Shown here: positions 1,726 to 37,950 of the stretch, one piece after another
Numbering within the stretch: the stretch's first letter is position 1
Layout of the letters: each line of letters begins with the position of its first letter
Origin: Streptomyces somaliensis DSM 40738
GTDB taxonomy: Bacteria; Actinomycetota; Actinomycetes; Streptomycetales; Streptomycetaceae
Length of the DNA: 38,750 nt
Direction: 5' to 3'
Assembly (NCBI GenBank): GCA_012396115.1
Contig: JAAXOU010000012.1
Coordinates: forward strand, 1-38,750
Position numbers and translations under genes: made by a program
The notes under the pieces: model-generated
What the model saw: the letters and a program-made list of their open reading frames with translations, nothing else
What the model was told of the DNA's origin: nothing
The model's database searches: none

Positions 1726-2823
1726 TCACGGGCGGCCGGGCAGTTCGGACAGCCCGTGGCCGAGGCCCGGGGCGCCGGGCAGGTCGACGCGGCCGGTGTC
1801 CGCGGCGCCGGCGAAGGCCAGCGGGGCGAGCGGCTCCTCGGCGACGAGCAGGGGGCCGACGAGGTCGGCGGGGACGGTGGCGTGGGGCAGGGCGGCCGCG
1901 AGGTGGGCCGCGGCGAGGGTGGCGACGCCCAGTTCCGGCATGGAGCCGATCTTCACGGTGAGGCCGGCGGCCTCCGCGAGCGCGGCGATCTGGCGGGCGC
2001 GGTGCAGCCCGCCCACCTTGAGGACCTTGACGTTGAGCACGTCGGCGGCGCCGCGCCGGACGATCTCCATGGCGTCGTGCAGCGACTGCAGCGACTCGTC
2101 GGCCATCACCCGCGGCCCGCCGCGGCCGCGCAGCGCGGCCATCCCCGCGAGGTCCCAGCGCGGCAGCGGCTGCTCGACGAGGTCGAGGCCCTCCTCGCCG
2201 AGCCGCGCCACGGTGCGGGCGGCGGTGGACGGGTCGTAGCCCTCGTTGGCGTCGAGGCAGAGCTCGACGCCGTCGGGGACGGCCGCCCGGACGGCGCGGA
2301 CCAGCGCGACGTCGCGGTCCGGGTCCTCGCCGCCCTTGAGCTTGACGTGGGTGAAGCCCCGCGCGGCGTACTCGGCGGCCTCCTCGGTCATCTCCCGGGG
2401 TGTGCCCAGGCCGACCACCCAGGCGGTGGGCACCCGCGTGCGCAGCCGCCCGCCGAGGAGCAGGTGGACGGGCCAGCCGGCGGCGCGTCCGGCGAGGTCG
2501 TGCAGGGCCAGGTCGAGGGCGGCCTTGGCCAGGCGCTGGCCGCGGATCGCCGCATCCATCGCGGCGTGGGCGCCGGCGAGGTCGCGCGGGTCGCGGCCGA
2601 CCAGGGCCGGGGCGGCGTGGCCGGTGAGCGCGGCGCGCAGCCCGTCGAGGGTCTCCCCCGTGTAGGCGGTCATGGGCGACGCCTCGCCGTAGCCGGTGGC
2701 GCCGTCGCCGGTGCGCACCTCGACGACGAGGCTGACGAGGTCGGGGCTGGTCCCGCTGCTGATGGCGAAGGGGCGTCGGTAGGGGGCCCGGACGACGTGG
2801 CTGCGGATCGACTCGATCTTCAC
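1726..2823 (-). CDS. Mandelate racemase / muconate lactonizing enzyme family (dipeptide-epimerase-like)
   Basis: This is a 365-residue enolase-superfamily enzyme. Such enzymes remove a proton alpha to a carboxylate using Mg2+. The GTG start at 2823 has an AGGAG ribosome site just upstream. An N-terminal capping domain (about 1-125) precedes the barrel. Visible catalytic features are the KxK pair K161 and K163 (HVKLKG), metal ligands D191 (LDANEG), E217 (LVEQPL) and D242 (MADESL), and K266 opposite (NVKVLK). This pattern fits the MLE / dipeptide epimerase subgroup, not mandelate racemase itself, but the substrate (dipeptide, acyl-amino acid or lactone) cannot be read from the sequence. The start lies 45 bases after the stop of the regulator gene on the same strand, so the two probably form an operon and share the control region at 4149-4193. 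Confidence 0.88.
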   Translation of the reverse strand: MKIESIRSHVVRAPYRRPFAISSGTSPDLVSLVVEVRTGDGATGYGEASPMTAYTGETLDGLRAALTGHAAPALVGRDPRDLAGAHAAMDAAIRGQRLAKAALDLALHDLAGRAAGWPVHLLLGGRLRTRVPTAWVVGLGTPREMTEEAAEYAARGFTHVKLKGGEDPDRDVALVRAVRAAVPDGVELCLDANEGYDPSTAARTVARLGEEGLDLVEQPLPRWDLAGMAALRGRGGPRVMADESLQSLHDAMEIVRRGAADVLNVKVLKVGGLHRARQIAALAEAAGLTVKIGSMPELGVATLAAAHLAAALPHATVPADLVGPLLVAEEPLAPLAFAGAADTGRVDLPGAPGLGHGLSELPGRP

Positions 2824-2868: not shown

Positions 2869-4095
2869 CTAGAGGCGTACTCGGTAGACGATGGGCGGCC
2901 GGCCGGTGCGCCCCTCCTGCCGGCTGCCGACGGGGACGGCGACGCCGGCGCGCTCCAGGCGCTTGAGGATGCGCCGGGCGGTGCGCTGCTGGACGTCGAG
3001 GTGCTCGGCGACGCGGTGCGCGGTGATGCCGGGCTCCTCCTCGGCGGCGACCAGTTCCCGCAGCCGCTCCAGCGTCCCCGGGTTGAGGCCGGCCCGCCGG
3101 GCGAGCAGCCCGGTGCCCTCCGCCCCGTCGGGCCGGGCGCCGTCCGCGCCGCCGGCGATGACGACGTCGACGTCGTCCTTCATGCAGACGACGCCGGCGA
3201 CCGGCCCGACGGAGCGGGCCCGGTTCACCGCCCGCCGGGCCAGCGCCTCCGCCTCGGCGGCGGTGCGGCCGAGGCCGAAGCCGACGCGGACGGAGCCGTG
3301 CCGGGCGGCGAGGCCGTCGAGGAACGGCAGGCGGGTGAACCCGTCGGTGGCCTCCTCCAGCGCGCCGCGCGTGGTCACCGCGAGGCGGCTGCCGTCCGGC
3401 AGCGCGGCGAGGCTGCCGCCGAGGACGGCGAGGTCCGCGGCGAGGTCCTCGTCGGCGGCCGGCAGGTCGACGATGCCGAGGGCGATCCGGGCGTCGTCGC
3501 TGTGCGCGCCGGTGGTGGCGAGGACCAGCGCCCGCAGGGTCGCGCGTATGGAGTGGCGGGAGGGGGCGAGCCGCACGGCGGGCAGGCGGTGCTCCAGCCG
3601 GTGGTAGGCCGAGCCCAGGCAGGTGAGGGCGGTGGTGGTGCCGTGGCGGTCGCGCGCGGCGAGGTGGAAGTCGACCAGGTCCTGGGAGGTGAGGCCGGGC
3701 CGGTGGGGCAGGACGCGGACGTGCTCGGTGGGCAGCTTGGCCTCGAGGAGGGTCTCGGTCACCTCGGCGCGGCCGAGGGTGTCGATGGAGAGGCGGGACA
3801 CGTCGTGGCCGAGGCGCAGCAGCTCGACGAGGGCCCGCAGCAGGGTGGCGCCGCTGTACGGGACGTACATGGCGGGGCGGTCGAGCAGGCCCGCGCCGGC
3901 GGCGAGGGCGTGCGGGACGACGCCGGTGAACAACAGGGCGTCGACGCGGGGGCCCGCGTCGCGGACCACGTCGGGCGTCTCGTCCTCGTGCCGGTACGGG
4001 AAGGCGCGCAGCCGGGCGGCTCCGGTCCCGCCGCCGACCGCGACCGCCTTCCCCACCAGGTCCTCGGGGCCTATCACGCCGACCGTGAGCGTCAT
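2869..4095 (-). CDS. Putative ligand-sensing transcriptional regulator with C-terminal winged HTH
   Basis: This 408-residue protein has three visible parts. Residues 1 to about 200 form an alpha/beta domain with VGVIGP at the start and VDALLFTGVVP, reminiscent of periplasmic-binding or PrpR-like sensor folds. Residues about 205-315 (LGIVDLP, GVGFGLGRTAAEAEALARRA-like pattern, VAGVVCMKDD) resemble nucleotide-cyclase / GGDEF-like domains of sensory regulators. The last 70 residues contain a winged helix-turn-helix (ITAHRVAEHLDVQQRTARRI) and a basic tail. It starts at ATG 4095 after GGAGA. It is divergent from the aminotransferase gene and probably cotranscribed with the enolase-superfamily gene. 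Being the only DNA-binding protein in the island, it is the best candidate to bind the repeated dyad found upstream of four transcription units. I do not recognise a named family; domain assignments other than the HTH are tentative. Confidence 0.7.
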   Translation of the reverse strand: MTLTVGVIGPEDLVGKAVAVGGGTGAARLRAFPYRHEDETPDVVRDAGPRVDALLFTGVVPHALAAGAGLLDRPAMYVPYSGATLLRALVELLRLGHDVSRLSIDTLGRAEVTETLLEAKLPTEHVRVLPHRPGLTSQDLVDFHLAARDRHGTTTALTCLGSAYHRLEHRLPAVRLAPSRHSIRATLRALVLATTGAHSDDARIALGIVDLPAADEDLAADLAVLGGSLAALPDGSRLAVTTRGALEEATDGFTRLPFLDGLAARHGSVRVGFGLGRTAAEAEALARRAVNRARSVGPVAGVVCMKDDVDVVIAGGADGARPDGAEGTGLLARRAGLNPGTLERLRELVAAEEEPGITAHRVAEHLDVQQRTARRILKRLERAGVAVPVGSRQEGRTGRPPIVYRVRL

Positions 4096-4148: not shown

Positions 4149-4193
4149 TTGACGCCCGCCCGCGGGGGTCTTAGTTTCGGCCCAGGCCGCAAC
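4149..4193 (+). promoter_or_regulatory. Promoter with regulon dyad, site A
   Basis: TTGACG (4149-4154), a 17-base spacer and TAGTTT (4172-4177) make a good primary-sigma-type promoter for the aminotransferase gene. Over the -10 and start region lies the dyad GTTtCGG-CCCAGG-CCGcAAC (4174-4193), matching the sites at 6400, 10434 and 12552. Overlap with the -10 suggests repression. It lies in the divergent gap, so the regulator operon could be controlled from it too. Confidence 0.65.
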
Positions 4194-4222
4194 CGCGTGT
4201 CTGGCGGAAGGATAGTAACCCG

Positions 4223-5359
4223 ATGCCCGAACGGGAAATCCCCCTGCCCACGGTGCTCGACCCGGGCGGCAGGACGATCGGCGAGGAGGAGCGCGCCGCG
4301 GTGCTGCGGGTCCTCGACTCGGCGGTGCTGTGCAGCGCGTTCGGCTCCGAGGCGCGGTCGCTGGAGGCGGAGACGGCCGCGCTGTACGGGCGTCCGCACG
4401 CCGTGGCGTGCTCCTCCGGCACGGCGGCGCTGCACCTGGCGGTCGCGGCGTGCGGGGTGGGGCCGGGCGACGAGGTGGTGACCACGCCGATCTCGGACTT
4501 CGGCACGGTCGCGCCGGTCCTGGCGCAGGGCGCGGTGCCGGTCTTCGCGGACGTGCGCGCCGAGGACGGCAACCTCGACCCCGACGCCGTGGAGGCCGCG
4601 ATCACGCCGCGGACGAAGGCGGTGATCGCCGTTCACCTGTTCGGCGGAGCGGCGGACACGGCGCGGCTGCGGGAGGTGTGCGACCGGCACGGGCTGCCGC
4701 TGGTCGAGGACTGCGCGCAGGCGTGGCTCGGCGAGGACGCGTCGGGGCGGCTGCTCGGTACGGTCGGCGACGTCGCGTGCCTCAGCCTCCAGCAGTTCAA
4801 GCACATCACCGCGGGCGACGGCGGCCTCGCCGTGACGGGGGACCCGGAGCGGGCCCGGCGGATGCGGCTGTTCATGGACAAGGGCTGGGACCGCTCGGAG
4901 GGGCGCGTCCACCGCGAGATGGGCCTCAACTACCGGATGCCGGAGCTGGTCGCCGCCGTGGCGCGGGCCCAGCTGCGCAAGGTCGGGGGCGTCGTACGGG
5001 CCCGGCGGGAGGCGGCCGGGCGGCTGCTGGCCGCGCTGGAGGGGCTGGAGGGGGTGGCGCTCGCCGGGGAGCCGGCGGGGCACGCGTGGTGGATGTTCCC
5101 GCTGCTGGTCGACGACAACGCCCGCTGGGCGGAGGGGCTCGCGGCGCAGGGCGTGCCGGCGCTCCCCGGCTACCTGGAACGCCCGCTGTACGCCAACCCG
5201 GCGGTGCCGGGTGGCCGGGCGGGGCTGTGCCCGCGCGCGGAGGAGCTGATCGGCCGGACGCTGCTGGCGCTGCCGTGGAACGAGGCGTACAGGCGGGAGC
5301 ACGTGGACCGGATCGCCGGCGCCCTGCGCCTGGCCGGCCGGCGGGCGGGCGCCGGGTGA
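4223..5359 (+). CDS. DegT/DnrJ/EryC1/StrS family PLP-dependent aminotransferase
   Basis: This 378-residue fold-type I aminotransferase starts at ATG 4223 with GGAAGGA upstream. Landmarks are the phosphate-binding SSGTAALHLA (64-73), the PLP-ring Asp D163 in VEDCAQ, and the Schiff-base lysine K193 in QQFKHITAGDGG. The family transfers an amino group from Glu or Gln to keto-sugars, keto-cyclitols or related ketones, usually in sugar or antibiotic biosynthesis. Here it stands alone among catabolic-looking genes beside a sugar-type importer, so it may act on an imported keto- or amino-sugar in either direction. That is inference. It is convergent with the DapA-like gene (15 bases between stops). 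Its promoter carries the regulon dyad. Confidence 0.9.
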   Translation: MPEREIPLPTVLDPGGRTIGEEERAAVLRVLDSAVLCSAFGSEARSLEAETAALYGRPHAVACSSGTAALHLAVAACGVGPGDEVVTTPISDFGTVAPVLAQGAVPVFADVRAEDGNLDPDAVEAAITPRTKAVIAVHLFGGAADTARLREVCDRHGLPLVEDCAQAWLGEDASGRLLGTVGDVACLSLQQFKHITAGDGGLAVTGDPERARRMRLFMDKGWDRSEGRVHREMGLNYRMPELVAAVARAQLRKVGGVVRARREAAGRLLAALEGLEGVALAGEPAGHAWWMFPLLVDDNARWAEGLAAQGVPALPGYLERPLYANPAVPGGRAGLCPRAEELIGRTLLALPWNEAYRREHVDRIAGALRLAGRRAGAG

Positions 5360-5374
5360 GCCGGCGCGCCGGGG

Positions 5375-6349
5375 TCAGCCGGCGCCGTCCTCCGCGGCGA
5401 GGCGCTCCAGGCAGGTGACGACGGCGCGCCGCTCGGCGTCGGGCAGGGCCGGCCCGTACGGGTCGAAGGCGGCCTCCTCGGGGATGGCGCCCTCCCAGAC
5501 GGCGGCCCACAGCATCCGCTGCACATAGCCCTCGACGGGGGCGTGGAAGGTGGCCTCGGCGAACCGGTCCAGCCGCCCGGAGGCCCGCAGGAAGCCGGCG
5601 GCGTCCCCCGTCCTCCACGCGTCGAGCACGGCGGTGGTCAGGCCCGCGCGGGCGGCGGCGACGCCGACCAGCGCCGTGTCGGCGCCCCACATCAGCGACG
5701 GGCCGAACATGCGGTCCTCGCCGGTCACGACCAGAGCGCCGGTGCCCTCGGCGGCCCGGACGGCGTCCTGGCAGTCCACCGCCCGGTCCAGCGTGGCGAT
5801 CTTGATGCCGGCCACGGAGGGCAGCGCCAGCAGCCGCCGGACCAGCTCCGGCGGGTAGGGGTAGCCGCCCGCCTCCGCGTGGAGGAGGAAGCCGAGGACG
5901 GGCAGCCCGCTCGCCTCCGCCACCCGCTCGTGGAGCCGCACGGCCCGCTCCGTCCCGTCGGGCAGGGCGTGGTGGCGGGCCACCGGGTACACCATCACGG
6001 CGTCGGCGCCCAGTTCGGCGGCCTCCGCCGCCATCGCCACCGCGGCGTCCTCGGCGTCCTCCAGGGGTGCGCCGCGCAGCGCGCGCGGCACGCCCGCCCC
6101 GGCGACGACCGGTACGTCCACCGCCTCCCGCCACAGCGCCAGCACCCGCCGCCGGTCGGCCGCCGCCAGGTGCAGTCCTCGGCCGGTGTGCGCCCACACC
6201 GCGACGCCGCCGATCCGCTCGGCCGCCATCCGTTCGGCGTACCGGCGCAGGGCGGCGTGGTCGACGGCGCCGGCGGCGTCCATCGGGGTGAGCACGGCGG
6301 GCAGCACGGTGCCGCGCAGCCGTCCGGCGAGTTCCTCGGTGGCGGACAC
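5375..6349 (-). CDS. Dihydrodipicolinate synthase (DapA)/NAL family lyase, lacking the usual catalytic Tyr
   Basis: This is a 324-residue protein of the class I aldolase TIM-barrel family, whose members cleave or form 2-keto acids through a lysine Schiff base. The GTG start at 6349 is chosen because GGGGGCC precedes it and because the in-frame ATG at 6439 would run back through the shared operator and over the start of the neighbouring gene. The Schiff-base lysine is K183 in GIKIATLD. The substrate-carboxylate loop is altered (AHTGRG at 53-58). The position that normally holds the proton-relay tyrosine (YNxP in DapA) reads FLLHAEAGG (153-161) with no tyrosine. The fold is clear but the chemistry probably differs from DapA. 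It is divergent from the flavin oxidoreductase gene across site B. Confidence 0.85.
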   Translation of the reverse strand: MSATEELAGRLRGTVLPAVLTPMDAAGAVDHAALRRYAERMAAERIGGVAVWAHTGRGLHLAAADRRRVLALWREAVDVPVVAGAGVPRALRGAPLEDAEDAAVAMAAEAAELGADAVMVYPVARHHALPDGTERAVRLHERVAEASGLPVLGFLLHAEAGGYPYPPELVRRLLALPSVAGIKIATLDRAVDCQDAVRAAEGTGALVVTGEDRMFGPSLMWGADTALVGVAAARAGLTTAVLDAWRTGDAAGFLRASGRLDRFAEATFHAPVEGYVQRMLWAAVWEGAIPEEAAFDPYGPALPDAERRAVVTCLERLAAEDGAG

Positions 6350-6399
6350 GGGCGGCCCCCTGTCTGACGGTCTGTCGCCTCGGTGTGCGTTCACGCTAG

Positions 6400-6423
6400 C
6401 CTTTGCGGCCCGGACCGTAAAGG
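6400..6423. promoter_or_regulatory. Regulon dyad, site B, in a divergent promoter region
   Basis: CCTTTgCGG-CCCGGA-CCGtAAAGG is a dyad with nine-base arms and one mismatch, placed 50 bases upstream of the lyase GTG and 14 bases upstream of the oxidoreductase ATG. It matches sites A, C and D in spacing and core. A single site could control both divergent genes. A TAGCCT hexamer (6397-6402) may be the -10 for the rightward gene, but no clear -35 was found. Confidence 0.65.
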
Positions 6424-6437
6424 AAGGAACCGGTGCC

Positions 6438-7424
6438 ATGCGCCTCGGCCTCTACGTCAACCTCTACGCCGACGGGGCCGACCGGCCGCGGCTCGCCGAC
6501 GCGGTGGAGCAGGTGCGGCTGGCGGAGCAGGCGGGCTTCGCCTGGGCGGTCCTCGGCGAGCGGCACCTGCACCGCCCGGGCTACCACGAGGCCGTCACGA
6601 CGCTGGCGTACCTCGCCGCGCACACCGAGCGGATCGGGCTGGCCACGGCCGGGCTGATCGCCCCCGTCTACCACCCGGTGTGGCTGGCGGAGACCCTCGC
6701 CCACGTCGACGTGCTGTCCGGCGGGCGGCTGACGGCCGGCTTCGTCCTCGGCTACCGGCCGGAGGAGTTCCGGCTGTACGGCACCGAGCCGCGCGAGCGG
6801 GTGCCGCGGTTCGAGGAGTGCCTGGAGCTGGTGACGCGGCTGTGGACCGAGGACGAGGTCACCCACGAGGGCCGCTTCACCTCCCTGGAGGGGGCATTCC
6901 TGTCGCCCCGCCCGGTGCAGGACCCGCGCCCTCGGATCTGGAACGGCGGGCGGGTGTCCGCCTCGCTGGAGCGGACGGCCCGGATGTGCGACGGCTGGAC
7001 GACGTCCTTCAACGAGCTGGACGCGGAGCTGCCCGCCAAGATCGCCGAGTACCGGGCCTACCCGCGGGGCGCGGCGAGCCTCGGCGCGGAGGTCGTCGTC
7101 TGCCGCGAGGGCTACTGCGCCCCCACCACGCGGCTGGCGCGGGCCGCGCTGGAGGGCCCGCTGCGCGGCCTGTACGACGCCTACGGCGACTGGAAGCGCA
7201 CCTCTGCGGACGCGGCGCGGTACGCGCAGGAGTGGGACGACATCGCGGCCCGGTCGGTGATCGGCTCCCCCGGGGAGTGCGCCGACCGGCTCGGCCGCTA
7301 CGCGGCGATGGGCGCGGACGGGGTCGTCCTGCGCGTCCAGCCGCCGGGCATGCCGCAGGCGGACGCGCTGCGCGCCGTCGAGGCGTACGGCGCGCACGTG
7401 CTGCCGGGGTTGCGGGCCGCCTGA
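6438..7424 (+). CDS. LLM-class (luciferase-like) flavin-dependent oxidoreductase
   Basis: This 328-residue protein starts at ATG 6438, preceded by GGAAGGA. It shows the bacterial-luciferase TIM-barrel pattern: MRLGLYVNL at the N-terminus, WAVLGERHLHRPGYHEAVTTLAYLAAHTERIGLATA (residues roughly 36-71, read in parts), AETLAHVDVLSGGRL, and GSPGECADRLGRYAAMGADGV near the C-terminus. Such enzymes use FMNH2 or F420 to oxidise or reduce varied substrates. Which cofactor is used here cannot be decided. It is divergent from the DapA-like gene and shares site B, and its stop is three bases from the convergent permease stop. A role in modifying the imported substrate of this island is inferred. Confidence 0.88.
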   Translation: MRLGLYVNLYADGADRPRLADAVEQVRLAEQAGFAWAVLGERHLHRPGYHEAVTTLAYLAAHTERIGLATAGLIAPVYHPVWLAETLAHVDVLSGGRLTAGFVLGYRPEEFRLYGTEPRERVPRFEECLELVTRLWTEDEVTHEGRFTSLEGAFLSPRPVQDPRPRIWNGGRVSASLERTARMCDGWTTSFNELDAELPAKIAEYRAYPRGAASLGAEVVVCREGYCAPTTRLARAALEGPLRGLYDAYGDWKRTSADAARYAQEWDDIAARSVIGSPGECADRLGRYAAMGADGVVLRVQPPGMPQADALRAVEAYGAHVLPGLRAA

Positions 7425-7427
7425 GGG

Positions 7428-8231
7428 TCAGCCCTTGAGGCCGGCCGTGGCGACGGACTCGGTCAGGTAGCGCTGGAGGAGGCCGAAGACCAGCAGGCAC
7501 GGCAGGACCGTGATGGTCGCCCCGGCCATGACCTGGTTGACGGCGACGTTCTCCCCCTCCAGGGTGGCCAGGCCCACGGTGAGGGTCCGCATCCCGGAGG
7601 ACTGGCCGATCACCAGCGGCCACAGGAAGTCGTTCCAGTGCCACAGGAAGACGAAGACGCCCAGGGTGGCCAGGACCGGGGTGATCAGCGGGACGACGAC
7701 GGTGGTGTAGATCCGCCACTCGGACGCCCCGTCGATCTTCGCGGCCTCGAACAGCTCGTCGGGGAGCTGTGCGATGAACTGCCGCATCAGGAAGACCGCC
7801 TGCGAGTTGGCGAGCGTGGGCACGATCAGGCCCCAGTACGTGTCCACGCCGCCGAGCCGGGAGACGAGGACGAAGTACGGGACGAGCGTGGCCTGGAACG
7901 GCACCATCAGCGTCGCCAGGAACGACCAGAACAGCACCTCGCGCCCCGGGAACCGCTTCTTGGCGAAGGCGTACCCGGCCATGGACGAGAACAGCAGGAT
8001 CAGCACCACCGACACGAGCGAGTAGACCAGGGAGTTGACGGCCCAGCGGGTGACGTCGGCGCCGGAGAGCACGGCGGAGAAGTTCTCCCAGGTGGCCCGT
8101 GTCAGGTCGAAGGCGCCGGGCAGGGTCCTCCCGCCCGGCGGCGCGAACGCGACCAGCACCATCACGACGAAGGGCGTCACCGTCACCAGCGCCACCAGGA
8201 CCAGCAGGACCGGCAGCCGCACCCTCGCCAT
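7428..8231 (-). CDS. Carbohydrate ABC transporter permease (MalG-like)
   Basis: This 267-residue inner-membrane permease has about six hydrophobic helices, starting VLLVLVALVTVTPFVVMVLV. The binding-protein-dependent transport loop (EAA motif) ELFEAAKIDGASEWRIY contacts the ATPase. Its ATG overlaps the stop of the preceding permease by one base (TGATG), so translation is coupled. It is the last gene of the operon that begins with the binding lipoprotein. No ATPase gene is adjacent. In Streptomyces a shared ATPase such as MsiK, encoded elsewhere, commonly serves these carbohydrate importers; that this holds here is inference. Confidence 0.92.
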   Translation of the reverse strand: MARVRLPVLLVLVALVTVTPFVVMVLVAFAPPGGRTLPGAFDLTRATWENFSAVLSGADVTRWAVNSLVYSLVSVVLILLFSSMAGYAFAKKRFPGREVLFWSFLATLMVPFQATLVPYFVLVSRLGGVDTYWGLIVPTLANSQAVFLMRQFIAQLPDELFEAAKIDGASEWRIYTTVVVPLITPVLATLGVFVFLWHWNDFLWPLVIGQSSGMRTLTVGLATLEGENVAVNQVMAGATITVLPCLLVFGLLQRYLTESVATAGLKG

Positions 8232-9046
8232 CACCCGTCCCGTCCGATCAGCCGGCGCTGGATCAGGGAGAACACCAGGACCACCAGGAAGAGGACCAGT
8301 CCCAGCGCGCTCGCGTAGCCGAAGTCGAAGAACTTGAAGCCGGTGTCGTACAGGAGGTACACGAGGGAGTAGCTGGCGCGCACGGGGCCGCCCGCCGTCA
8401 TCACGTACATCGCGTCGAACACCTGGAACGCTCCGATCGCCTCGATGACCAGGACGAAGAAGAGCACCGGTCGCAGCAGCGGCAGCGTGATCCAGCGCAG
8501 CCGCCGCCAGCCGGTGGCGCCGTCGACGACGGCGGCCTCGGTGACCTCGCGCGGGACGGACTGGAGCCCGGCGAGGAGGATCAGCATCGAGTAGCCGAAG
8601 CCCTTCCAGGCGGACGCGGCCGCGATGGCGGGCAGGACGAGGGCCTCGTCGCCGAGGAAGTCGACGGGGCCCAGGGAGAGGACGCCGAGCGCCGCGTTGA
8701 GCAGGCCGTCCTCGACGTCGTAGATCCACTTCCAGACGACGGCGGCGAGCACGATGCTGGTGACGTACGGCAGGAAGAACACGCCGCGGAAGAAGCCGCG
8801 CAGCCAGACCGTGCGGTGCAGCAGCAGGGCCGTGCCGAGCGAGAGGCCGACCGTCAGCGGCACGAGGAACAGGGTGTACAGGGCGGTGACGCCGAGGCTG
8901 GACCAGAACAGGTCGTCCCTCAGGAGCCGGGCGTAGTTCGCGGCCCCGACGAAGCTCCAGTCGCCGCTGAGCCGGTAGTCGGTGAGGGAGAGGAACGCGG
9001 CGCCGAGCGTCGGGCCGAACCGGAAGACCGCGAACAGCAGCAGCAT
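8231..9046 (-). CDS. Sugar ABC transporter permease (MalF-like); 5' end probably frameshifted
   Basis: The intact part is 271 residues with about six membrane helices and the EAA loop VTEAAVVDGATGWRRLRW. The first ATG in frame (9046) falls inside the first membrane helix, since the upstream in-frame codons read REARVGLLFVAP directly before it. No ATG, GTG or TTG exists in frame further upstream. A different frame starting at TTG 9135, overlapping the stop of the binding-protein gene, encodes a plausible N-terminus with strong G/C third positions (see 9047-9135). The gene therefore likely starts at 9135 and is interrupted by a one-base loss, either real or a sequencing error. If translated only from 9046 the protein would lack its N-tail and half of helix 1. 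The product is probably the partner permease of the gene at 7428-8231. Confidence 0.8.
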   Translation of the reverse strand: MLLLFAVFRFGPTLGAAFLSLTDYRLSGDWSFVGAANYARLLRDDLFWSSLGVTALYTLFLVPLTVGLSLGTALLLHRTVWLRGFFRGVFFLPYVTSIVLAAVVWKWIYDVEDGLLNAALGVLSLGPVDFLGDEALVLPAIAAASAWKGFGYSMLILLAGLQSVPREVTEAAVVDGATGWRRLRWITLPLLRPVLFFVLVIEAIGAFQVFDAMYVMTAGGPVRASYSLVYLLYDTGFKFFDFGYASALGLVLFLVVLVFSLIQRRLIGRDG

Positions 9047-9135
9047 CGGCGCGACGAACAGCAGTCCGACGCGCGCCTCGCGGCGGCGGGCCCGGGGGTC
9101 GCGGCGGTGCGCTCGCCCGCCGTGTCCGCCGTCAA
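9047..9135 (-). pseudogene. Displaced 5' reading frame of the MalF-like permease
   Basis: TTG 9135 overlaps the TGA stop of the binding-protein gene (TTGA) and opens a frame reading MTADTAGERTAATPGP, a normal hydrophilic N-tail for this family, with every third base G or C. Around 9085-9105 this frame becomes implausible, while the -1 frame becomes RRREARVGLLFVAP and runs into the permease. One extra base in the C-run GGGCCC would join the two frames. A homopolymer sequencing error or a genuine single-base deletion would both give this picture. Confidence 0.55.
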
Positions 9136-10391
9136 CGCTGCCTCGCCAGCAGGTCGTCGGCCTGCGCGGCCGCCGCGTCCAGGGCCTCCTTCGGGCTCTT
9201 GCGCCCCGTGAGGGCGGCCTGGATCTCGGGGGCGATCAGGGACATCAGCTGGCGGGCGACGGGGCTGGGCTCGCCGGGGTGGGCGAACGGCAGGGCCTCC
9301 TGGAACCGCTTGGCGTACGGGGTGTCGCCGGTCACCGTCACGTCGGTGCGGGGCGAGAGGAAGCCGCTGGCCTCGCCCAGGCTCCGGATGCGCTCGGGCT
9401 GCGCCATGAAGGCGAGGAACTTCTCGGCGCCCGCGACGTTGCGCGAGTCGGCGTTGAGGCCGAGGCCGCCGGGGACGCCGAAGGCGACCTGCTCGGCGTC
9501 GCGCAGGGGCTTGCCGACGACGACGTTCTCCGCGCCCCAGGTCCTGCGGGCCAGGTCGGCGTCGGCGGGGGTGTTGGAGAAGCCCATGGCGGCCTGCTGC
9601 TTCCCCAGGGGGTGGTCGGCGAAGATGTTGGTGTTGGTGAGGGCCGTCCGGGGGATGGCGCCCGCCTTGTAGAGGTCGGTGAGGAAGGTGAGGGCGGCGA
9701 CCCCCTCGGGCCCGTTGAAGGCGGCCTTCCGGCCGTCCTCGGAGAAGACGCTGCCGCCGGCCTGCCACAGCAGCGGGTAGAAGTTCAGGTTGAGGGTCGC
9801 TTCGTTGCTCGCCGAGTAGTCCAGGGTGGCGACGCCGGCCCGCTTCAGCCTGGGCGCGGCGGCCCTGATCTCGTCCCAGGTGGCGGGCGGCTCCTCGATG
9901 CCGGCCCGGTCGAGGAGCCGCTTGTTGTAGAGCGTCGTGGTGACGGTGTGGTAGATCGGCACCGCGTACAGCCTGCCGTCGTGGCTGAGGGCCTTGAGGG
10001 CGTTGGGGAGGAACGATTCCTCGATGCCCTCGACCGCCTTGTCGACGGGGCGCAGGGCGCCGTTGCCGAGGTACTGGGGGACCTGGTCGGGGTTGAGCAG
10101 CATCACGTCGGGGCCCTTGCCGCTGCCGAGGGCGGTGGCGAGCTTCTCGTCGCGGTTCTCCCAGGGCTGCTCCTCGATGGTGACCGGGGTGCCGGGGTTG
10201 GCCGCCTCGAAGTCCTCCTCGACCTTCTTCCAGTAGGCGGAGTTGGCCTTGGGGTCGGCGATGACGGGATACATCCAGACGGTGACGTCGTTCGATCCGG
10301 CCCCGCCGTCGCCGCCGCCGCAGCCGGCCAGCAGGGAGGCCGTGGCGAGGAGGGCGAGGAGGGTGGTGGCGCGCTTGGAGCCTGTCGTCAT
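9132..10391 (-). CDS. Extracellular solute-binding lipoprotein of a sugar-type ABC importer
   Basis: This 419-residue protein has a lipoprotein signal peptide with lipobox LLAGC (Cys24), followed by a Gly/Asp linker and a two-lobed binding-protein fold of the MalE / family 1 type (for example YWKKVEEDFEAANPGTPVTIEEQPWEN, split here as residues around 50-77). It should be anchored outside the membrane and deliver substrate to the two permeases downstream; its stop overlaps the probable permease start. ATG 10391 follows GGAGGCC. The promoter at 10474-10451 carries the regulon dyad, so uptake is tied to the enzymes of the island. The ligand is unknown; the family mostly binds oligosaccharides but also glycerol phosphates and other polyols. 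Confidence 0.92.
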   Translation of the reverse strand: MTTGSKRATTLLALLATASLLAGCGGGDGGAGSNDVTVWMYPVIADPKANSAYWKKVEEDFEAANPGTPVTIEEQPWENRDEKLATALGSGKGPDVMLLNPDQVPQYLGNGALRPVDKAVEGIEESFLPNALKALSHDGRLYAVPIYHTVTTTLYNKRLLDRAGIEEPPATWDEIRAAAPRLKRAGVATLDYSASNEATLNLNFYPLLWQAGGSVFSEDGRKAAFNGPEGVAALTFLTDLYKAGAIPRTALTNTNIFADHPLGKQQAAMGFSNTPADADLARRTWGAENVVVGKPLRDAEQVAFGVPGGLGLNADSRNVAGAEKFLAFMAQPERIRSLGEASGFLSPRTDVTVTGDTPYAKRFQEALPFAHPGEPSPVARQLMSLIAPEIQAALTGRKSPKEALDAAAAQADDLLARQR

Positions 10392-10430
10392 GGAGGGCCT
10401 CCGCAGGCCTGAGAAGGAGAGGCAAGCCCG

Positions 10431-10479
10431 GTCACTTTCGGTCAGGGCCGAAAGTAACCGGGCGGAAATCGGCTGTCAA
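10431..10479 (-). promoter_or_regulatory. Promoter with regulon dyad, site C
   Basis: On the minus strand TTGACA (10479-10474), a 17-base spacer and TACTTT (10456-10451) give a near-consensus promoter for the importer operon. The dyad ACTTtCGG-TCAGGG-CCGaAAGT (10434-10455) overlaps the -10 and has eight-base perfect arms; allowing one mismatch, it extends to 10431-10458. This is the most perfect of the four sites and lies 36-60 bases upstream of the ATG, a repressor-like position. Confidence 0.75.
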
Positions 10480-10496
10480 TGGGACCGGAAGCGGGT

Positions 10497-12524
10497 TCAG
10501 CGGCGCACGTCGACCTTGTACAGCTCGGGGCCGCGGCTGAGGTACAGCCACCCCTCGTGCGCGATCAGCCGCCGGTGCGGGAAGTTGACCAGGAGCTGCG
10601 GGTCGCGGTGGGGGAAGAGCGGGTCGACCCGGAAGATCAGCGCGCCGTCGACGGAGACGTACAGCTTGCGGCGGCTGACCGCGATCGACCCGTCGTTGTT
10701 GCGCGTGCCCAGTTCCAGGCGCCGCAGGACGGCTCCCGTCCGCGGGTCGAGGGCGAACAGCGAGTGCCCGGCAAGCGCCCAGACCGCGTCGCAGGCGACC
10801 GCGACGGCGCTCACCGCCGCCGTCCCCGGGACGAGCTCCCGCTCCCACAGCTTCTCGGCGCGCTCCACGTCGTACGCGAAGGCGGCGCCGGCCGTCCGGG
10901 TGGGCGGGGTGGTGCCGAGGCCGCCGAAGATCGACGCGCCGCCGTAGACCACGCCGTCGGCCGCGGCGAGGGCGATGATCGACATGTCCCGGACGATGTT
11001 GCGGGTGAACGTCCACCCGCCGGTGGCCTTGTCGTACACGGCGAGGCCACCGCCCAGGCGGTTGCCCTCCGGGACCGTGCCGACCGCGATCTTCCCGTCG
11101 ACCTCGGCGAGGCTGCGGGCCCGCGCCTGCAGGTGGGGCCTGAGGGTGAGGACGACCTCGGGGTTGGCCGGGGTGCCGGGCGGGCCCTCCGGGGAGTACT
11201 CGGGGCTGTTCCACGGCCGGTCCGGCCGGTAGCGGAAGAGCTTCGCGTCGGGGTACTGGCCGATCCAGACCGTGCCCTCGGAGTCGCGCAGGATCGCCTC
11301 GATCTGGCCGAAGCGGTGGAAGGACGCCTCACCCGTCACCGTGTCGACGGACGACAGACCGCCGTTGAGGAACCCTCCCGCGTAGACGGTGCGGCGGCCG
11401 CCGGCCGCGAGGGCCTGGATGTCGATCGGCTCCCTGCGGACATCCGTCCCCAGCACGGCGTGCGCGCCCGTGGTCGGGTTGTACCGGAACATGTCGCCAC
11501 GCCACAGGGTGCCGACGAGGCTCCGGCCGGGGTAGTCGGGCAGGCCCAGCTCGGCCCAGCCGAACGAGCGGGCGTTCTGCACCTTGCCGGTGAGGAACAG
11601 GCCCGTGCCGGTGTTCTGCCCGGTGACCGGGTCGTACCGGCGCAGTTCGCCGCGCTGGAAGAAGTAGACCGCCCCGTCCTCGTCCGGCGGCGAGACGCTC
11701 AGGCCGTGGACCTCCGGGATGGGGTCCGACCAGGTGCGGGTGGCGAGGTCGAAGACGTACAGCGGGCTGGGGGCGTCGGAACCGATCCGGGCGTACAGCC
11801 GGCCGTCGTACGCGTTGAGGTCGTAGACCGGCTTGCCGGCGATCGTGCCGAGGCCGGGCGGCGTGGGCAGCTGGGTGAAGACGCCGGTGGCCGGGTCCAG
11901 CTCGGCAATGTGGGCGGCCGCGTAGGAGCCGCTGTACACCCTGTCGCCGTAGCAGGCGATGCTGCGCACGTACGTCTGTCCCGGGACGGCCTGCCCGAAG
12001 TCGGTGAAGGCGCGGGTGGCCGGGTCGAAGCGGAAGACCCTGCCGCCGGGGAACGTGCCGCCCCACACCCTGCCGTCGGCGTCGGTGGCGAGGCACCAGA
12101 TGAAGGTCTGCCCGGCCACCGGCAGGCCCAGGTCCTCCACGGTGTCGCCGGAGCCCGGCGTCCAGCGGTACAGGTGCGCGTTGCCGTAGGTGCCCGCGTA
12201 CACGCCGCTGGGGGCGGCGGTGACGGCCCAGGCACCGTCGGCGCCCGTCAGCGGGGCGCTGACCAGCAGGTCTCCGGTGGTGGGGTCCATCGCGTTGAGG
12301 CGGGCGGGCTTGCCCGTGGAGGCGCTCCACAGGGCCTGCCTCCCGGAGGGCCCCGGAGCGACGGTGCCGCCGAGCAGCAGGACGTCGGCGAGGGGGATCC
12401 CGATGAACTGGGGTTCGCGCATGAGCTGGCTCCCGGCCTCGGCGTGTGCTTCGGGAGAGGGGGGCAGGAGGGCGGCGGAGATAACTGCGGTCGAGCCGGC
12501 GAGGAACGCGCGTCGCGTCGCCAC
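10497..12524 (-). CDS. Tat-exported beta-propeller repeat protein (PQQ-like repeats)
   Basis: This protein of 675 residues starts at GTG 12524, chosen because GGGAGG lies eight bases upstream and it opens a Tat-type signal (TRRAFLAG, hydrophobic stretch, cleavage AHA around residues 28-30). An ATG 66 bases earlier lies upstream of this ribosome site and before the signal. The body is a series of blade-like repeats of the form GRVWGGTFPGGRVFRFDP and GDRVYSGSYAAAHIAELDP, ending in YKVDVRR. Such propellers bind ligands or act as scaffolds; some are lyases or oxidases, but I see no catalytic signature. The upstream dyad ties it to the importer and enzymes, so it may handle the substrate outside the cell. 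Function unknown. Confidence 0.8.
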   Translation of the reverse strand: MATRRAFLAGSTAVISAALLPPSPEAHAEAGSQLMREPQFIGIPLADVLLLGGTVAPGPSGRQALWSASTGKPARLNAMDPTTGDLLVSAPLTGADGAWAVTAAPSGVYAGTYGNAHLYRWTPGSGDTVEDLGLPVAGQTFIWCLATDADGRVWGGTFPGGRVFRFDPATRAFTDFGQAVPGQTYVRSIACYGDRVYSGSYAAAHIAELDPATGVFTQLPTPPGLGTIAGKPVYDLNAYDGRLYARIGSDAPSPLYVFDLATRTWSDPIPEVHGLSVSPPDEDGAVYFFQRGELRRYDPVTGQNTGTGLFLTGKVQNARSFGWAELGLPDYPGRSLVGTLWRGDMFRYNPTTGAHAVLGTDVRREPIDIQALAAGGRRTVYAGGFLNGGLSSVDTVTGEASFHRFGQIEAILRDSEGTVWIGQYPDAKLFRYRPDRPWNSPEYSPEGPPGTPANPEVVLTLRPHLQARARSLAEVDGKIAVGTVPEGNRLGGGLAVYDKATGGWTFTRNIVRDMSIIALAAADGVVYGGASIFGGLGTTPPTRTAGAAFAYDVERAEKLWERELVPGTAAVSAVAVACDAVWALAGHSLFALDPRTGAVLRRLELGTRNNDGSIAVSRRKLYVSVDGALIFRVDPLFPHRDPQLLVNFPHRRLIAHEGWLYLSRGPELYKVDVRR

Positions 12525-12907
12525 AGACGGAACACCTCCCTGGAGGAAGAGAGTTACGGCACTAGCCGAAAGTGATACGCCGCAGCTCATGGGCCGTCAA
12601 CGGTACGCGTCGCCCTCACCGTGTCCCGATACGACACACGGCCGCCCCCGAGACGTCAGCCGGAGGGGCGACACCGTGGTCACGGGGTGTGCGGCGCCTC
12701 CCGCGCCGGTGTTCCGGAACTTTTCGGCCGACTCCCCGGGCGGCCGGGGTCGCGCGCCCCTTCGGCCATCCGGACGCCACCGGACCGGCGGCCGCACCCG
12801 GACGGCGGAGGCGGCGCGGTCGGTGGGGTCGGCGGGGCCGGCACGGTCGGCACGGTCGGCACGCGCAGCGCCCGGCCACGAGGGGCGGCGGGCGGGCCGG
12901 AGCGCCG
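12525..12907. other. Intergenic stretch with the propeller promoter and a short tandem repeat
   Basis: The right-hand part of this gap contains no convincing gene. The propeller promoter and site D lie at 12552-12600. A short direct repeat, GGCACGGTC in about three copies, occupies roughly 12838-12866. The rest is GC-rich with no recognisable element. Confidence 0.4.
12552..12600 (-). promoter_or_regulatory. Promoter with regulon dyad, site D
   Basis: On the minus strand TTGACG (12600-12595), a 17-base spacer and TATCAC (12577-12572) precede the dyad, which on the plus strand is AGTTaCGG-CACTAG-CCGaAAGT (12552-12573). It matches site C in core, spacing and outer A/T pair. It lies 28-49 bases upstream of the propeller GTG. 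Confidence 0.65.
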
Positions 12908-17000: not shown

Positions 17001-18047
17001 TCAGGTGCCGTGCGGGTGCAGGGTGGCCTCGCCGGTGAGGTGGACGCCGACCCTCCGTCCCGGTTCGACCCGCAGCGGGGCGGGGGCGCGGACGTCGACC
17101 GGCCGGTCGAGGCCGTCGACGGCGACCGTGACCAGGGCGTCGTGGCCGAAGAAGCGGACGTCGGTCACGACGCCCTCGGCGCCGGCGCCGCCCGGCTCCA
17201 CGAGCCGGAGCTGTTCGGGCCTGAGGAGGACCAGGCCCTCGCGCCGGCCCGCCGGGGCGGCGGCCAGCGGGACGCGGCCCAGCGCGGTCGTGGCCGCGCC
17301 CCCCTCGGCGGTGCCGGGCACCAGGACGGCGTCCCCGACGAAGGAGGCCAGCCACGGGTCCGCGGGCCGGTGGTAGAGATCCTCCGGGGTGGCGCACTGG
17401 GCCACCCGCCCCTCGCGCAGGACGGCGACGACGTCGGCGGTGGAGAGCGCTTCCTGCTGGTCGTGCGTGACGAGCAGGCCGGTCGCGCCGCTCTCCCGGA
17501 GCACGGCGCGGACCTCCGCCCGCACGGCGCCGCGCAGTCCGCTGTCGAGTGCGCTGAACGGCTCGTCGAGCAGGACGAGGTGGGGTCGCGGGGCGAGCGC
17601 GCGGGCCAGGGCCACGCGCTGCTGCTGGCCGCCGGAGAGTTCGTGCGGCATGCGGTCGCCGTAGCCGGGCAGGCCCACCAGGTCGAGCATCTCCCCCACG
17701 CGCGCCCGCCGGGCCGGGCGGTCGAGGTCCCCCAGCCCGAAGGCGACGTTCCGGGCCACGCTCAGGTGGGGGAAGAGCGCGCCCTCCTGGGGGACGATCC
17801 CGATGCGGCGCCGCTCGGGCGGCAGGTGGACGCCGGGGCCGCCGAGGAGCCGGCCGGCGACCGTCACGGTGCCGGCGTCGGCCTTCAGGAAGCCGGCCAC
17901 CACCCGCAGCAGGGTGGTCTTGCCGCAGCCGGAGGGGCCGAGGACGGCGGCGAGGGCGCCGCCGGGGACGGTGAGGTCGAGCCCGTCGAGGACCGGCGCC
18001 CCCGGCCCGTACGCCTTGACCAGGCCGTCGACCTGGAGCTCGCTCAT
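17001..18047 (-). CDS. Ferric iron ABC transporter ATP-binding protein (FbpC-like)
   Basis: This 348-residue cytoplasmic ATPase has Walker A GPSGCGKT (37-44), a Q-loop, the signature LSGGQQQR and Walker B LVLLDEPFS, followed by the H-loop LLVTHDQQEA. A C-terminal TOBE-like region (about 240-348) is typical of the Fbp/Pot/spermidine group. Its ATG overlaps the permease stop by four bases (ATGA). It is the last gene of the three-gene operon behind the iron box at 20711. The iron assignment rests on the binding protein and the iron box. Confidence 0.92.
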   Translation of the reverse strand: MSELQVDGLVKAYGPGAPVLDGLDLTVPGGALAAVLGPSGCGKTTLLRVVAGFLKADAGTVTVAGRLLGGPGVHLPPERRRIGIVPQEGALFPHLSVARNVAFGLGDLDRPARRARVGEMLDLVGLPGYGDRMPHELSGGQQQRVALARALAPRPHLVLLDEPFSALDSGLRGAVRAEVRAVLRESGATGLLVTHDQQEALSTADVVAVLREGRVAQCATPEDLYHRPADPWLASFVGDAVLVPGTAEGGAATTALGRVPLAAAPAGRREGLVLLRPEQLRLVEPGGAGAEGVVTDVRFFGHDALVTVAVDGLDRPVDVRAPAPLRVEPGRRVGVHLTGEATLHPHGT

Positions 18048-19633
18048 GTGCGGTGCCTTCCGAGGAGGTACGAGGGGACGGCTGCCAGCAGGATCAGCGC
18101 GGCGGCGTAGGGGGCGGCCGCGGCGAACGACCCGGTGCCGGTCTCGGTCCACAGCCGGGTCGCCAGGGTGTCCATGCCGGTGGGGCGCAGCAGCAGCGTG
18201 GCGGGGAGTTCCTTCATGCAGACGACGAAGGTGAGGGCGGCGCCGGCCGCGACGCCGGGCGCGGCGAGCGGCAGGGTGACCTCCCGCAGCACGCCGAGCG
18301 GTGTGCGGCCGAGGGAGCGGGCGACGTCGTCGAGGACGGGCGGCGCCTGGAGGACGGCGGCGCGGGTGGCGGCCACCGCGACGGGCAGGAAGAGCACCGC
18401 GTACGCGCAGACCAGCAGCGGCGTCTCCTGGTAGAGCGGGCGGGCGTAGCGGACGGCGAGGAACACCAGGGCGAGCGCGACGGTGATGCCGGGCACGGCG
18501 TGGCCCGCGTACGCGGCCTGTTCGAGGAGGTGGGCGAGGCGTCCGCGGTGGCGGGCGGCGATGATCCCGACCGGCAGCGCGAGCAGGGTGGTCAGGGCGG
18601 CGCCCGCGGCGGCCACGCCGAGGGTGGCGAGGGCGGTGGTGGTCAGCGCGGCCGGGTCCCAGGTGGCGGAGGTGCCGACGGCGAGCCAGTAGCCGAGCGT
18701 CGCGAGCGGGAAGCCGACGGCCAGGGCCGCGACCGCCCCGCACCAGGTGAGGGCGAGGGGCTTCAGCCGCCCGAGGGCGAGGGGGACGGCCCGCCGGGCG
18801 GTGCCCGTGCCGGTGCGGGCGTAGTCGGCGCGACCGCGGGTGCGGGTCTCGGCGGCGACGAGCAGCACGGTCATGACGACCAGGACGACGCTGAGCGCGG
18901 CGGCCGGGGTGCGGTCGAAGCTGGCCCGGTAGGAGGTGTGGATGCCGCGGGTGAAGGTGTCGTACCGCATCAGGGAGACGGCGCCGAAGTCGGAGAGGAC
19001 GTACAGCGCGACGAGGAGGCCGCCGCCCGCCGCGGCGGGCCGCAGCTGTGGCAGGGTGACGCGCAGGAAGGTGCGGAGGGGGCCGTGGCCGAGGGAGCGG
19101 GCCACCTCCTCGTGCCCGGGGTCGGTGCCGCGCAGTGCGGCGGCGACGGGCAGGTAGACGTACGGGAAGCTGGCGAGGGTGAGCGCGAGGGCCGATCCGG
19201 CGAAGCCGGCCAGCGAGGGCGCGGCGGACAGCCAGGCGAAGGCGGTGACGTAGCTCGGCACGGCCAGCGGCAGGGTGACCAGGACGGACCAGGCCCGGGC
19301 GCCGGGCAGCGCGGTGCGGACCGTGAGCCAGGCGAGCGGGACCGCGATCAGCAGGCAGGCGGCGACGACCGCGGCGGTCAGGCCGAGGCTGCGCAGGAGC
19401 AGTTCGCCGGTGCGCCGGTCGGCGACGACGTCCCAGGCGTAGGCGGGGCCGCGTTCGAGGGCGCGGACGGCGAGGTAGCCGAGCGGCAGGACGGCGAGCA
19501 GGGCGGCGGCCGCGGCGGGCACGACCAGGGTGCGGGCGGGCCGGCCGGCGGCGCGCCACCGCCCGGCGGGTGCCGGGGCACCTGCCGGGCGGGGGGTGCC
19601 GGGGGGCCGGACGGGGGCGTCCGGTGAGGCCAT
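18044..19633 (-). CDS. Ferric iron ABC transporter permease, fused two-domain (FbpB-like)
   Basis: This 529-residue inner-membrane protein has about 12 helices in two homologous halves. Each half has its own EAA-type loop: HEEVARSLGHGPLRTFLRVT in the first and LDDVARSLGRTPLGVLREVT in the second. The fused arrangement is standard for FbpB/SfuB-type iron permeases. The N-terminal 35 residues are Pro/Ala-rich and cytoplasmic. ATG 19633 is one base after the stop of the binding-protein gene, and the gene overlaps the ATPase start by four bases, so the three are tightly coupled. Confidence 0.93.
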   Translation of the reverse strand: MASPDAPVRPPGTPRPAGAPAPAGRWRAAGRPARTLVVPAAAAALLAVLPLGYLAVRALERGPAYAWDVVADRRTGELLLRSLGLTAAVVAACLLIAVPLAWLTVRTALPGARAWSVLVTLPLAVPSYVTAFAWLSAAPSLAGFAGSALALTLASFPYVYLPVAAALRGTDPGHEEVARSLGHGPLRTFLRVTLPQLRPAAAGGGLLVALYVLSDFGAVSLMRYDTFTRGIHTSYRASFDRTPAAALSVVLVVMTVLLVAAETRTRGRADYARTGTGTARRAVPLALGRLKPLALTWCGAVAALAVGFPLATLGYWLAVGTSATWDPAALTTTALATLGVAAAGAALTTLLALPVGIIAARHRGRLAHLLEQAAYAGHAVPGITVALALVFLAVRYARPLYQETPLLVCAYAVLFLPVAVAATRAAVLQAPPVLDDVARSLGRTPLGVLREVTLPLAAPGVAAGAALTFVVCMKELPATLLLRPTGMDTLATRLWTETGTGSFAAAAPYAAALILLAAVPSYLLGRHRT

Positions 19634-19634
19634 G

Positions 19635-37922: not shown

Positions 37923-37950
37923 CCCACGAGCCCTCTAAGGACGAAAGAGC

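What the first reader, a model, noticed from the sequence alone, without database searches (positions are those of the whole stretch)
4149..12600. Four matching dyads define an undescribed local regulon of seven or more genes
By eye, (G/C)TTnCGG-N6-CCGnAA(C/G) occurs at 4174-4193, 6400-6423, 10434-10455 and 12552-12573. Each copy is in a control region and I found none elsewhere in the window. They front the regulator-enolase operon and the aminotransferase (A), the lyase and the flavin oxidoreductase (B), the sugar-type importer (C) and the Tat propeller (D). The identical N6 spacing and core show one regulator. This joins enzymes that do not match any pathway I know.
Basis: partly seen in the sequence, partly recalled or inferred. 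Interest (0 to 1): 0.74.

Follow-up and report, generated by a model that had tools for sequence, protein, structure and literature searches.

The report
One repressor's four-promoter Streptomyces regulon
A soil bacterium carries nine neighbouring genes, an importer, a secreted protein and several enzymes, that are most likely switched together by one unnamed repressor binding the same 18-letter palindrome at four promoters; it matters because the regulator and the pathway it controls both look undescribed.

Summary
The four dyads are real. The core TTnCGG-N6-CCGnAA occurs exactly four times in the 4.73 Mb Streptomyces genome, all at the claimed places; a reversed control gives none. Only the outer G/C fails, at one site. 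The sites recur at orthologous promoters. A matrix from 66 sites of relatives, without the window, ranks the window's four first, above a random genome's best. Where genes are rearranged, or split 1.3 Mb apart, sites go with them. Sites are also found by homologues of the 408-residue regulator down to about 42% identity, once beside mostly other genes, but not at 26-35%. At the DegT and binding-protein promoters the site overlaps the -10 box; TTGACR starts 26-28 bases before the site in 29 of 30 copies. So this is a nine-gene, autoregulated, most likely repressed regulon. The regulator has a C-terminal winged HTH behind about 330 residues of no clear family. The pathway is unidentified; my weak guess is uptake and oxidative breakdown of an amino-sugar-like compound. 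Binding, repression and ligand are inferred, not tested. The fold prediction did not finish.

The parts
1726..2823 (-). ENOL: enolase-superfamily enzyme, muconate-lactonizing (MLE) type; behind the regulator, 45 bases apart
   Evidence: Pfam MR_MLE_N and MR_MLE_C; K161-x-K163, D191, E217, D242, K266 invariant in 6 of 6 aligned sequences
2869..4095 (-). REG: 408-residue regulator, C-terminal winged helix-turn-helix, N-terminal ~330 residues of no clear family; proposed repressor of the four sites and of itself
   Evidence: HTH_23 E 7.8e-6 at 343-386; no NCBIfam family at E 0.001; weak GCH_III match E 0.25 at 269-307; no clear PDB relative
4149..4154 (+). -35 box TTGACG of the DegT promoter; -10 TAGTTT at 4172-4177 overlaps site A
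4175..4192 (.). operator A, between REG and DegT
   Evidence: score 23.3 with the matrix from relatives
4223..5359 (+). DegT/DnrJ/EryC1/StrS-type PLP aminotransferase
   Evidence: Pfam E 1.8e-86; lysine K193 invariant in 8 of 8 aligned sequences
5375..6349 (-). DHDPS-family lyase/aldolase
   Evidence: Pfam E 5e-17; K183 invariant in 9 of 9 aligned sequences
6403..6420 (.). operator B, between DHDPS and LLM
   Evidence: score 24.6; exact site in 17 of 17 relatives whose fetched DNA shows an LLM gene
6438..7424 (+). LLM: luciferase-like flavin or F420 oxidoreductase
   Evidence: Pfam Bac_luciferase E 5.5e-56; best NCBIfam TIGR03619, 156.5 bits against a cut-off of 166.9
7428..8252 (-). ABC permease 2 of the sugar-type importer (start uncertain, overlaps permease 1)
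   Evidence: BPD_transp_1 E 2.1e-21 on the longer frame 7428-8729; UgpE-like
8231..9046 (-). ABC permease 1
   Evidence: BPD_transp_1 E 1.4e-17; UgpA-like
9132..10391 (-). SBP: solute-binding protein of the importer
   Evidence: SBP_bac_1 E 6.3e-43
10436..10453 (.). operator C in front of SBP; -35 TTGACA at 10479-10474 and -10 TACTTT at 10456-10451 on the - strand
   Evidence: (score 27.3)
10497..12524 (-). PROP: secreted beta-propeller protein with a TRRAFLAG Tat-type signal
   Evidence: PQQ_2 E 3.5e-8, Reg_prop E 4.3e-6 on the ORF 10497-12590; signal read by eye; no NCBIfam family at E 0.001
12554..12571 (.). operator D in front of PROP; -35 TTGACG at 12600-12595 and -10 TATCAC at 12577-12572 on the - strand
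   Evidence: (score 21.0)

Best explanation
The four palindromes are operators of one repressor, the 408-residue protein REG (2869-4095). It very likely binds as a dimer to a site of the kind TTWCGGYCYRGRCCGWAA, covers the -10 box and the start of transcription, and keeps nine genes off: itself with the MLE-type enolase, the DegT aminotransferase, the DHDPS-type lyase, the LLM oxidoreductase, the importer (binding protein and two permeases) and the secreted Tat propeller. A small molecule, probably the imported compound or a breakdown product, would release it. Shown by sequence: site rarity, conservation, promoter overlap, co-movement with the genes, co-inheritance with REG. Inferred: binding, repression, dimer, ligand. 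Weak inference: the genes import and oxidatively break down an amino-sugar- or aminocyclitol-like compound (deamination by DegT, oxidation by LLM, lactone opening by amidohydrolases in relatives, cleavage by the DHDPS-type lyase); for the pathway alone I would say 0.25.
For: 4 exact sites in 4.73 Mb, all here, 0 reversed-control hits. In 18 relatives' loci (366,526 bases) 47 exact sites, 47 of 47 outside called genes or close to their ends; 60 of 319 other half-sites of like make-up average 0.45 hits, largest 4. Matrix from 66 relative sites without the window: window sites score 21.0-27.3, next window place 4.9, best of a random 4.73 Mb 15.9. Site B exact in 17 of 17 relatives with an LLM gene; site A with 0-1 mismatch in 19 of 19 relatives, 4 of them exact. 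TTGACR starts 26-28 bases before the site in 20 of 20 A and 26-27 before it in 9 of 10 C copies, window included; 9 of 20,000 random positions. In G047, REG/enolase/DegT lie at 3.54 Mb and propeller/importer/LLM/DHDPS at 4.84-4.85 Mb, with sites at both. REG and LLM occur in the same 4 of 199 genus genomes. In Prescottella (REG 42-43%) an exact site lies in the divergent promoter region of the operon that holds REG, among mostly other genes. In a REG tree of 26 rows, one clade of 21 (100/99) holds every REG with a site found near it; the other 5 rows have none.
Against: No binding or expression data. SBP of L018 has no site with up to one mismatch. L078 REG (49%) has no site and L075 only one with two mismatches. 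The HTH letters do not explain this neatly: Prescottella REG has a site but reads IEPRSARR, L078 has none but reads VQPRTARR. The stricter palindrome is found in 4 of 195 genus genomes that lack REG and in no place of the window's own genome, whose sites have drifted. Promoters of REG, LLM and enolase are not clear. D has the -35 at the expected distance in 5 of 10 copies. Five relatives (L009, L011, L012, L017, L020) have another propeller gene (c14) with no site called before it. Relative sites were found with the window's pattern, so only the N6 and the positions are independent of it. In 20 relative genomes the exact pattern occurs 170 times against 51 for its reverse, so it also occurs outside islands.
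Confidence: 0.8

Rival explanations
1. The sites are real operators of REG, but REG is an activator at these promoters.
For: Site B covers the spacer between a weak TTTACG and TAGCGT for DHDPS in 16 of 17 copies scored, as the sites of some activators do (recalled).
Against: At A and C the site overlaps, and at D it abuts, the -10 box of promoters with a good -35, a place typical of repressors (recalled).
Confidence: 0.1
2. Another transcription factor reads these sites, and REG is a neighbour that only shares the island.
For: Binding was not tested. REG and LLM are inherited together in the genomes sampled, so in Streptomyces presence cannot tell them apart. HTH letters and site presence do not match neatly in L057 and L078.
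Against: The site is also there by REG where most neighbours differ (Prescottella L057), and sits 44-46 bases before REG in 12 of 15 more distant loci L063-L077, many of one genus.
Confidence: 0.07
3. The repeats are chance or some other conserved promoter feature, not a protein-binding regulon.
For: With one mismatch the motif is hardly commoner than its control in the window's genome (92 against 82).
Against: 0 control hits for the exact form, 47 against a mean of 0.45 for other half-sites, scores beyond a random genome.
Confidence: 0.01
4. Same regulon, but it serves synthesis of a small molecule rather than uptake and breakdown; the DegT enzyme would be biosynthetic as in amino-sugar antibiotics.
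For: Among the best solved relatives of DegT are biosynthetic sugar aminotransferases such as perosamine synthetase.
Against: An importer, a Tat-type secreted propeller and a DHDPS-type lyase, and amidohydrolases in relatives, point to intake; no glycosyltransferase or assembly enzyme among the nine genes of the window.
Confidence: 0.2

Closest known systems
Local one-component sugar-catabolism repressors of Streptomyces with a CUT1 importer, such as the CebR and DasR regulons (recalled)
   Same: Importer plus other genes under a repressor that reads a palindrome at several promoters; no ATPase among the genes behind the sites, as for importers served by MsiK (recalled).
   Different: REG shows no LacI domain and at best a weak GntR match in Pfam; gene set with MLE enolase, DHDPS-type lyase, LLM and DegT; another palindrome, though GGTCTAGACC in the centre of some relatives' sites resembles the DasR site (recalled).
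PucR-type regulators (GGDEF-like part and C-terminal HTH; PMC7652997 and PMC11617747, title and start of abstract seen in the listing)
   Same: Long protein with the HTH at the C-terminus.
   Different: No PucR HTH (HTH_30) among the 21 Pfam matches of REG at E 1; REG matches HTH_23 and HTH_24.
GTP cyclohydrolase III (GCH_III, PF05165)
   Same: A 39-residue stretch of REG (269-307) matches the end of its profile (E 0.25).
   Different: 11.1 bits against a cut-off of 21.3; the rest does not match; REG has a DNA-binding end.
Oxidative sugar-acid pathways with lactonase, enolase-superfamily dehydratase and DHDPS-family aldolase (recalled)
   Same: Amidohydrolases (in relatives), an enolase-superfamily enzyme and a DHDPS-family enzyme together with a sugar-type importer.
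   Different: The enolase is of the MLE type (KxK), not the usual acid-sugar-dehydratase type (recalled); DegT and LLM are extra.

Membership tests
Single-regulator local regulon | Shared operator in front of several transcription units and rare elsewhere | tested here: met
   4 of 4 exact genome sites in the island
Single-regulator local regulon | Operators conserved at orthologous promoters | tested here: met
   misses: L018 SBP; a separate enolase site is present in 12 of 19 relatives but not in the window
Single-regulator local regulon | Operator co-inherited with the regulator | tested here: met
   exceptions: L078 without site, L075 with two mismatches, 4 of 195 genomes with the stricter palindrome but no REG
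Single-regulator local regulon | Regulator binds the operator and changes transcription | not testable with these tools
   needs EMSA, footprint or RNA measurements
GntR/HutC (DasR-like) | N-terminal GntR winged helix and UTRA domain | tested here: not met
   HTH is C-terminal (343-386); GntR weakly in 3 of 17 members, best E 0.0015; UTRA not among the 21 matches of REG
LacI or ROK sugar repressors | N-terminal HTH with a LacI-type or ROK domain | tested here: not met
   neither among the Pfam matches of REG at E 0.001 or E 1
PucR | C-terminal HTH_30 behind a GGDEF-like domain | tested here: not met
   HTH_30 not among the 21 matches of REG at E 1
GCH_III-domain regulator | GCH_III fold over the N-terminal part | tested here: inconclusive
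   39-residue match, E 0.25, under cut-off; fold prediction unfinished
CUT1-type sugar ABC importer | Binding protein and two permeases of sugar type | tested here: met
CUT1-type sugar ABC importer | ATPase encoded with it | tested here: not met
   none among the nine genes; a shared MsiK is recalled, not searched
MLE subgroup of the enolase superfamily | KxK and K acid-base lysines with three metal ligands (recalled) | tested here: met
   invariant in 6 of 6 aligned sequences

The most novel reading that the evidence does not exclude
REG founds a family of repressors, spread over many Actinobacteria and with a homologue in Bacillus, whose large N-terminal domain derives from a nucleotide-cyclohydrolase-like fold now used as a sensor, and which controls an undescribed pathway for taking up and oxidising an amino-sugar- or aminocyclitol-like natural compound.
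Probability: 0.22. Interest if true: 0.72.

Novelty: new variant of a known kind. Interest (0 to 1): 0.52.

Why it matters
It gives an exact operator, a candidate regulator and nine target genes for a pathway of unknown substrate, with a related gene set in several actinobacterial families. The regulator has no named family beyond its HTH in Pfam or NCBIfam, so finding its ligand would reveal both a new kind of sensor and the substrate. The operator can be used to find the rest of the regulon where it is split, as in genome G047.

Tried and rejected
Chance was rejected. Relaxed scans were useless. A stricter palindrome missed the window's own sites. Sequence searches for the regulator's N-terminal fold gave nothing clear and one weak GCH_III hint. 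Closest solved enzymes did not name the substrate. Plasmid-collection records with distant REG or LLM relatives gave the Prescottella and Nonomuraea comparisons; the haloarchaeal ones led nowhere. Two profile surveys of REG disagree: 2 of 296 phylum genomes at E 1e-10 (profile A1) and 63 of 394 class genomes, 24 of 137 genera, at 1e-20 (profile A6, which includes two more distant rows); samples, profiles and candidates scored differ, so I give no frequency. Paper searches found no paper. Searches (10 of 18 listed) listed papers of which no title or abstract start concerns this regulon; 64 was on a relative species. I opened no paper. An idea that the site's loss follows a changed recognition helix was dropped, since L057 and L078 do not fit.

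L017, L019 and L021 (inserted or split regulator) and L025 (source rule of the fold tool) were left out of alignment A2; L007's genome was not held. The 66 sites were picked by me, with one mismatch allowed.
Full report
What was checked. The window is contig 24 of a Streptomyces genome of 4.73 Mb in 535 contigs. The exact core TTNCGGN6CCGNAA has four places in that genome and they are these four; the same pattern read backwards has none. With mismatches allowed the pattern loses its power.

Genes behind the sites. Site A: REG and, 45 bases behind it, the MLE-type enolase to one side, the DegT aminotransferase to the other. Site B: the DHDPS-family enzyme and the LLM oxidoreductase. Site C: binding protein and two permeases of a sugar-type importer without ATPase. 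Site D: a secreted propeller protein with a twin-arginine-type signal. Lysines K193 of DegT and K183 of DHDPS and the KxK...D...E...D...K set of the enolase are invariant in the sequences aligned (8, 9 and 6); that these are the catalytic residues is recalled.

Relatives. One scan gave 18 loci with orthologues of REG; the 15 aligned are 64-90% identical to it. G047 adds one independent genome. Site B is exact in 17 of 17 relatives whose DNA shows an LLM gene. Site A lies between DegT and REG, or before DegT where REG has moved, in 19 of 19, exact in 4 and with one mismatch in 15. Site C lies before the binding protein in 9 of 10 whose gene start is in the DNA (7 of the 9 exact; L018 has none). 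Site D lies before PROP in 4 relatives, and before a set of secreted-protein genes and PROP in L010 and L018; L008, L019 and L021 keep a D-like site 76 bases from C although no PROP is next to it. Twelve of 19 relatives have a further site before the enolase that the window lacks. Five relatives have another propeller gene with no site called before it. In L010, L013 and L018 genes are in another order and sites lie at the new promoters too. In G047 the regulon is in two places 1.3 Mb apart, with sites at both.

Strength. In the 18 loci, 366,526 bases, 47 of 47 exact sites lie outside called genes or close to a gene end; 60 of 319 other half-sites of the same make-up have a mean of 0.45 and at most 4 places (genes called by my own crude script). 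A palindromic matrix from 66 relative sites gives the window's four 27.3, 24.6, 23.3 and 21.0 bits; the next place in the window has 4.9 and the best in a random sequence of genome length 15.9. The relatives' sites were found with the window's pattern, so the fixed letters are not independent evidence; the palindromic YCYRGR centre, which the pattern left open, and the positions are. In 20 handles of relatives' genomes the exact pattern occurs 170 times against 51 for its reverse, two handles repeating others; so in those genomes it also occurs outside the island.

Promoter geometry. TTGACA or TTGACG begins 26-28 bases before the site in 20 of 20 A copies, 26-27 before in 9 of 10 C copies and 29-30 before in 5 of 10 D copies, window included; at random places of the same loci it begins at -28 to -26 in 9 of 20,000. 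The -10 hexamer (TAGTTT, TACTTT, TAATTT and the like) then shares its last bases with the operator at A and C, and TATCAC abuts it at those five D copies. A protein on the operator would block RNA polymerase. The promoters of REG, LLM and the enolase are not clear.

Which protein. In 199 genus genomes REG (E 1e-30) and LLM (E 1e-100) occur in the same 4. The stricter palindrome TTWCGGYCYRGRCCGWAA is in 3 of 3 other REG genomes, in 4 of 195 without REG, and in no place of the window's own genome. Those four hold only matches to the HTH end of REG, and no island gene lies within 1.5 kb of the one site read in each. Farther off, Nonomuraea REG (46%) has an exact site 44 bases before it, between DegT and REG, another exact one at L056 15396 and a one-mismatch one at 3220. 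Prescottella equi plasmid REG (42-43%) lies behind L-serine ammonia-lyase; an exact site lies in the divergent promoter region of that operon, whose neighbours are mostly other kinds of gene, two DHDPS-like ones among them. Of 15 loci L063-L077 (44-49%), one has an exact site and 11 a one-mismatch site 44-46 bases before REG; L076 and L077 have one-mismatch sites at -87 and -95, L075 one with two mismatches at -63. Many of these are one genus, g229, so they are not independent; one-mismatch places occur about once in 51 kb. L078 (49%) has none, nor have the 12 loci L079-L090, L058 and L051 (26-35%) apart from one distant one-mismatch place in L086. Eight control palindromes had 0 places in the 36 loci. 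In the tree, 21 of 26 rows form a clade at 100/99: 18 have a site of at most one mismatch in their island, L010's second REG only one 2.4 kb away, L075 two mismatches, L078 none; the other 5 rows have none. Long branches make the order within the tree unsure. Three of the distant loci read at length (L098-L100) carry DegT, amidohydrolase and propeller genes, two of them DHDPS and one the whole importer, with exact or one-mismatch sites.

How it works. Shown from sequence: a shared, rare, conserved operator on promoters of nine genes, one of them the regulator's own. Inferred with good support: REG binds it, as a repressor. Inferred weakly: an imported compound or its product releases it. Pathway: the enzymes fit intake and oxidative breakdown of an amino-sugar- or aminocyclitol-like compound, with amidohydrolases (PF04909) for lactone or amide opening in relatives. 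The window's island lacks those amidohydrolases, which speaks against a complete pathway here, or for simpler chemistry.

Comparison. It works like the local sugar-catabolism repressors of Streptomyces (recalled). REG is not a GntR, LacI, ROK or PucR member by the tests made; GCH_III membership is open. No NCBIfam family reached E 0.001 for REG, and two distant homologues with annotation are named hypothetical protein. I found no paper on it in the searches named; the library holds open-licence papers only.

Noticed in passing
L010 2983-4194 and L097 1501-2712: A second REG, 47-49% identical to the window's, lies near the first in L010 and in the genome taken to be that of L018; L097 has an exact palindrome about 160 bases upstream. 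The two regulators may read each other's sites.
   Followed up: partly
L017, L019, L021 regulator genes: REG has extra residues within one open frame in L017 and L019 (537 and 497 aa called) and is split into two called frames in L021; decay or assembly error.
   Followed up: no
L008 124-217, L019 1487-1580, L021 1230-1323: Where no propeller gene is adjacent, a D-like site remains 76 bases from site C, as if the gene was lost between two operators or a second operator is kept.
   Followed up: partly
L058 7817-7834: The Bacillus badius REG homologue (26%) has a perfect 18-base palindrome of another sequence about 90 bases upstream, a candidate operator for that branch.
   Followed up: no
L015 9924-9981: Tandem 10-base repeats of the kind CACTCCGGAA between site A and REG.
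   Followed up: no
window 17001-20654: A second ABC importer (binding protein, permease with two matched stretches, ATPase with TOBE domain), without the operator.
   Followed up: no
window 29612-32125: DEAD-box helicase with a full DUF3516 domain (E 4e-222).
   Followed up: no
window 36789-38679: Gene pair with a MurT ligase C-terminal domain and a GATase_3 domain, MurT/GatD-like.
   Followed up: no
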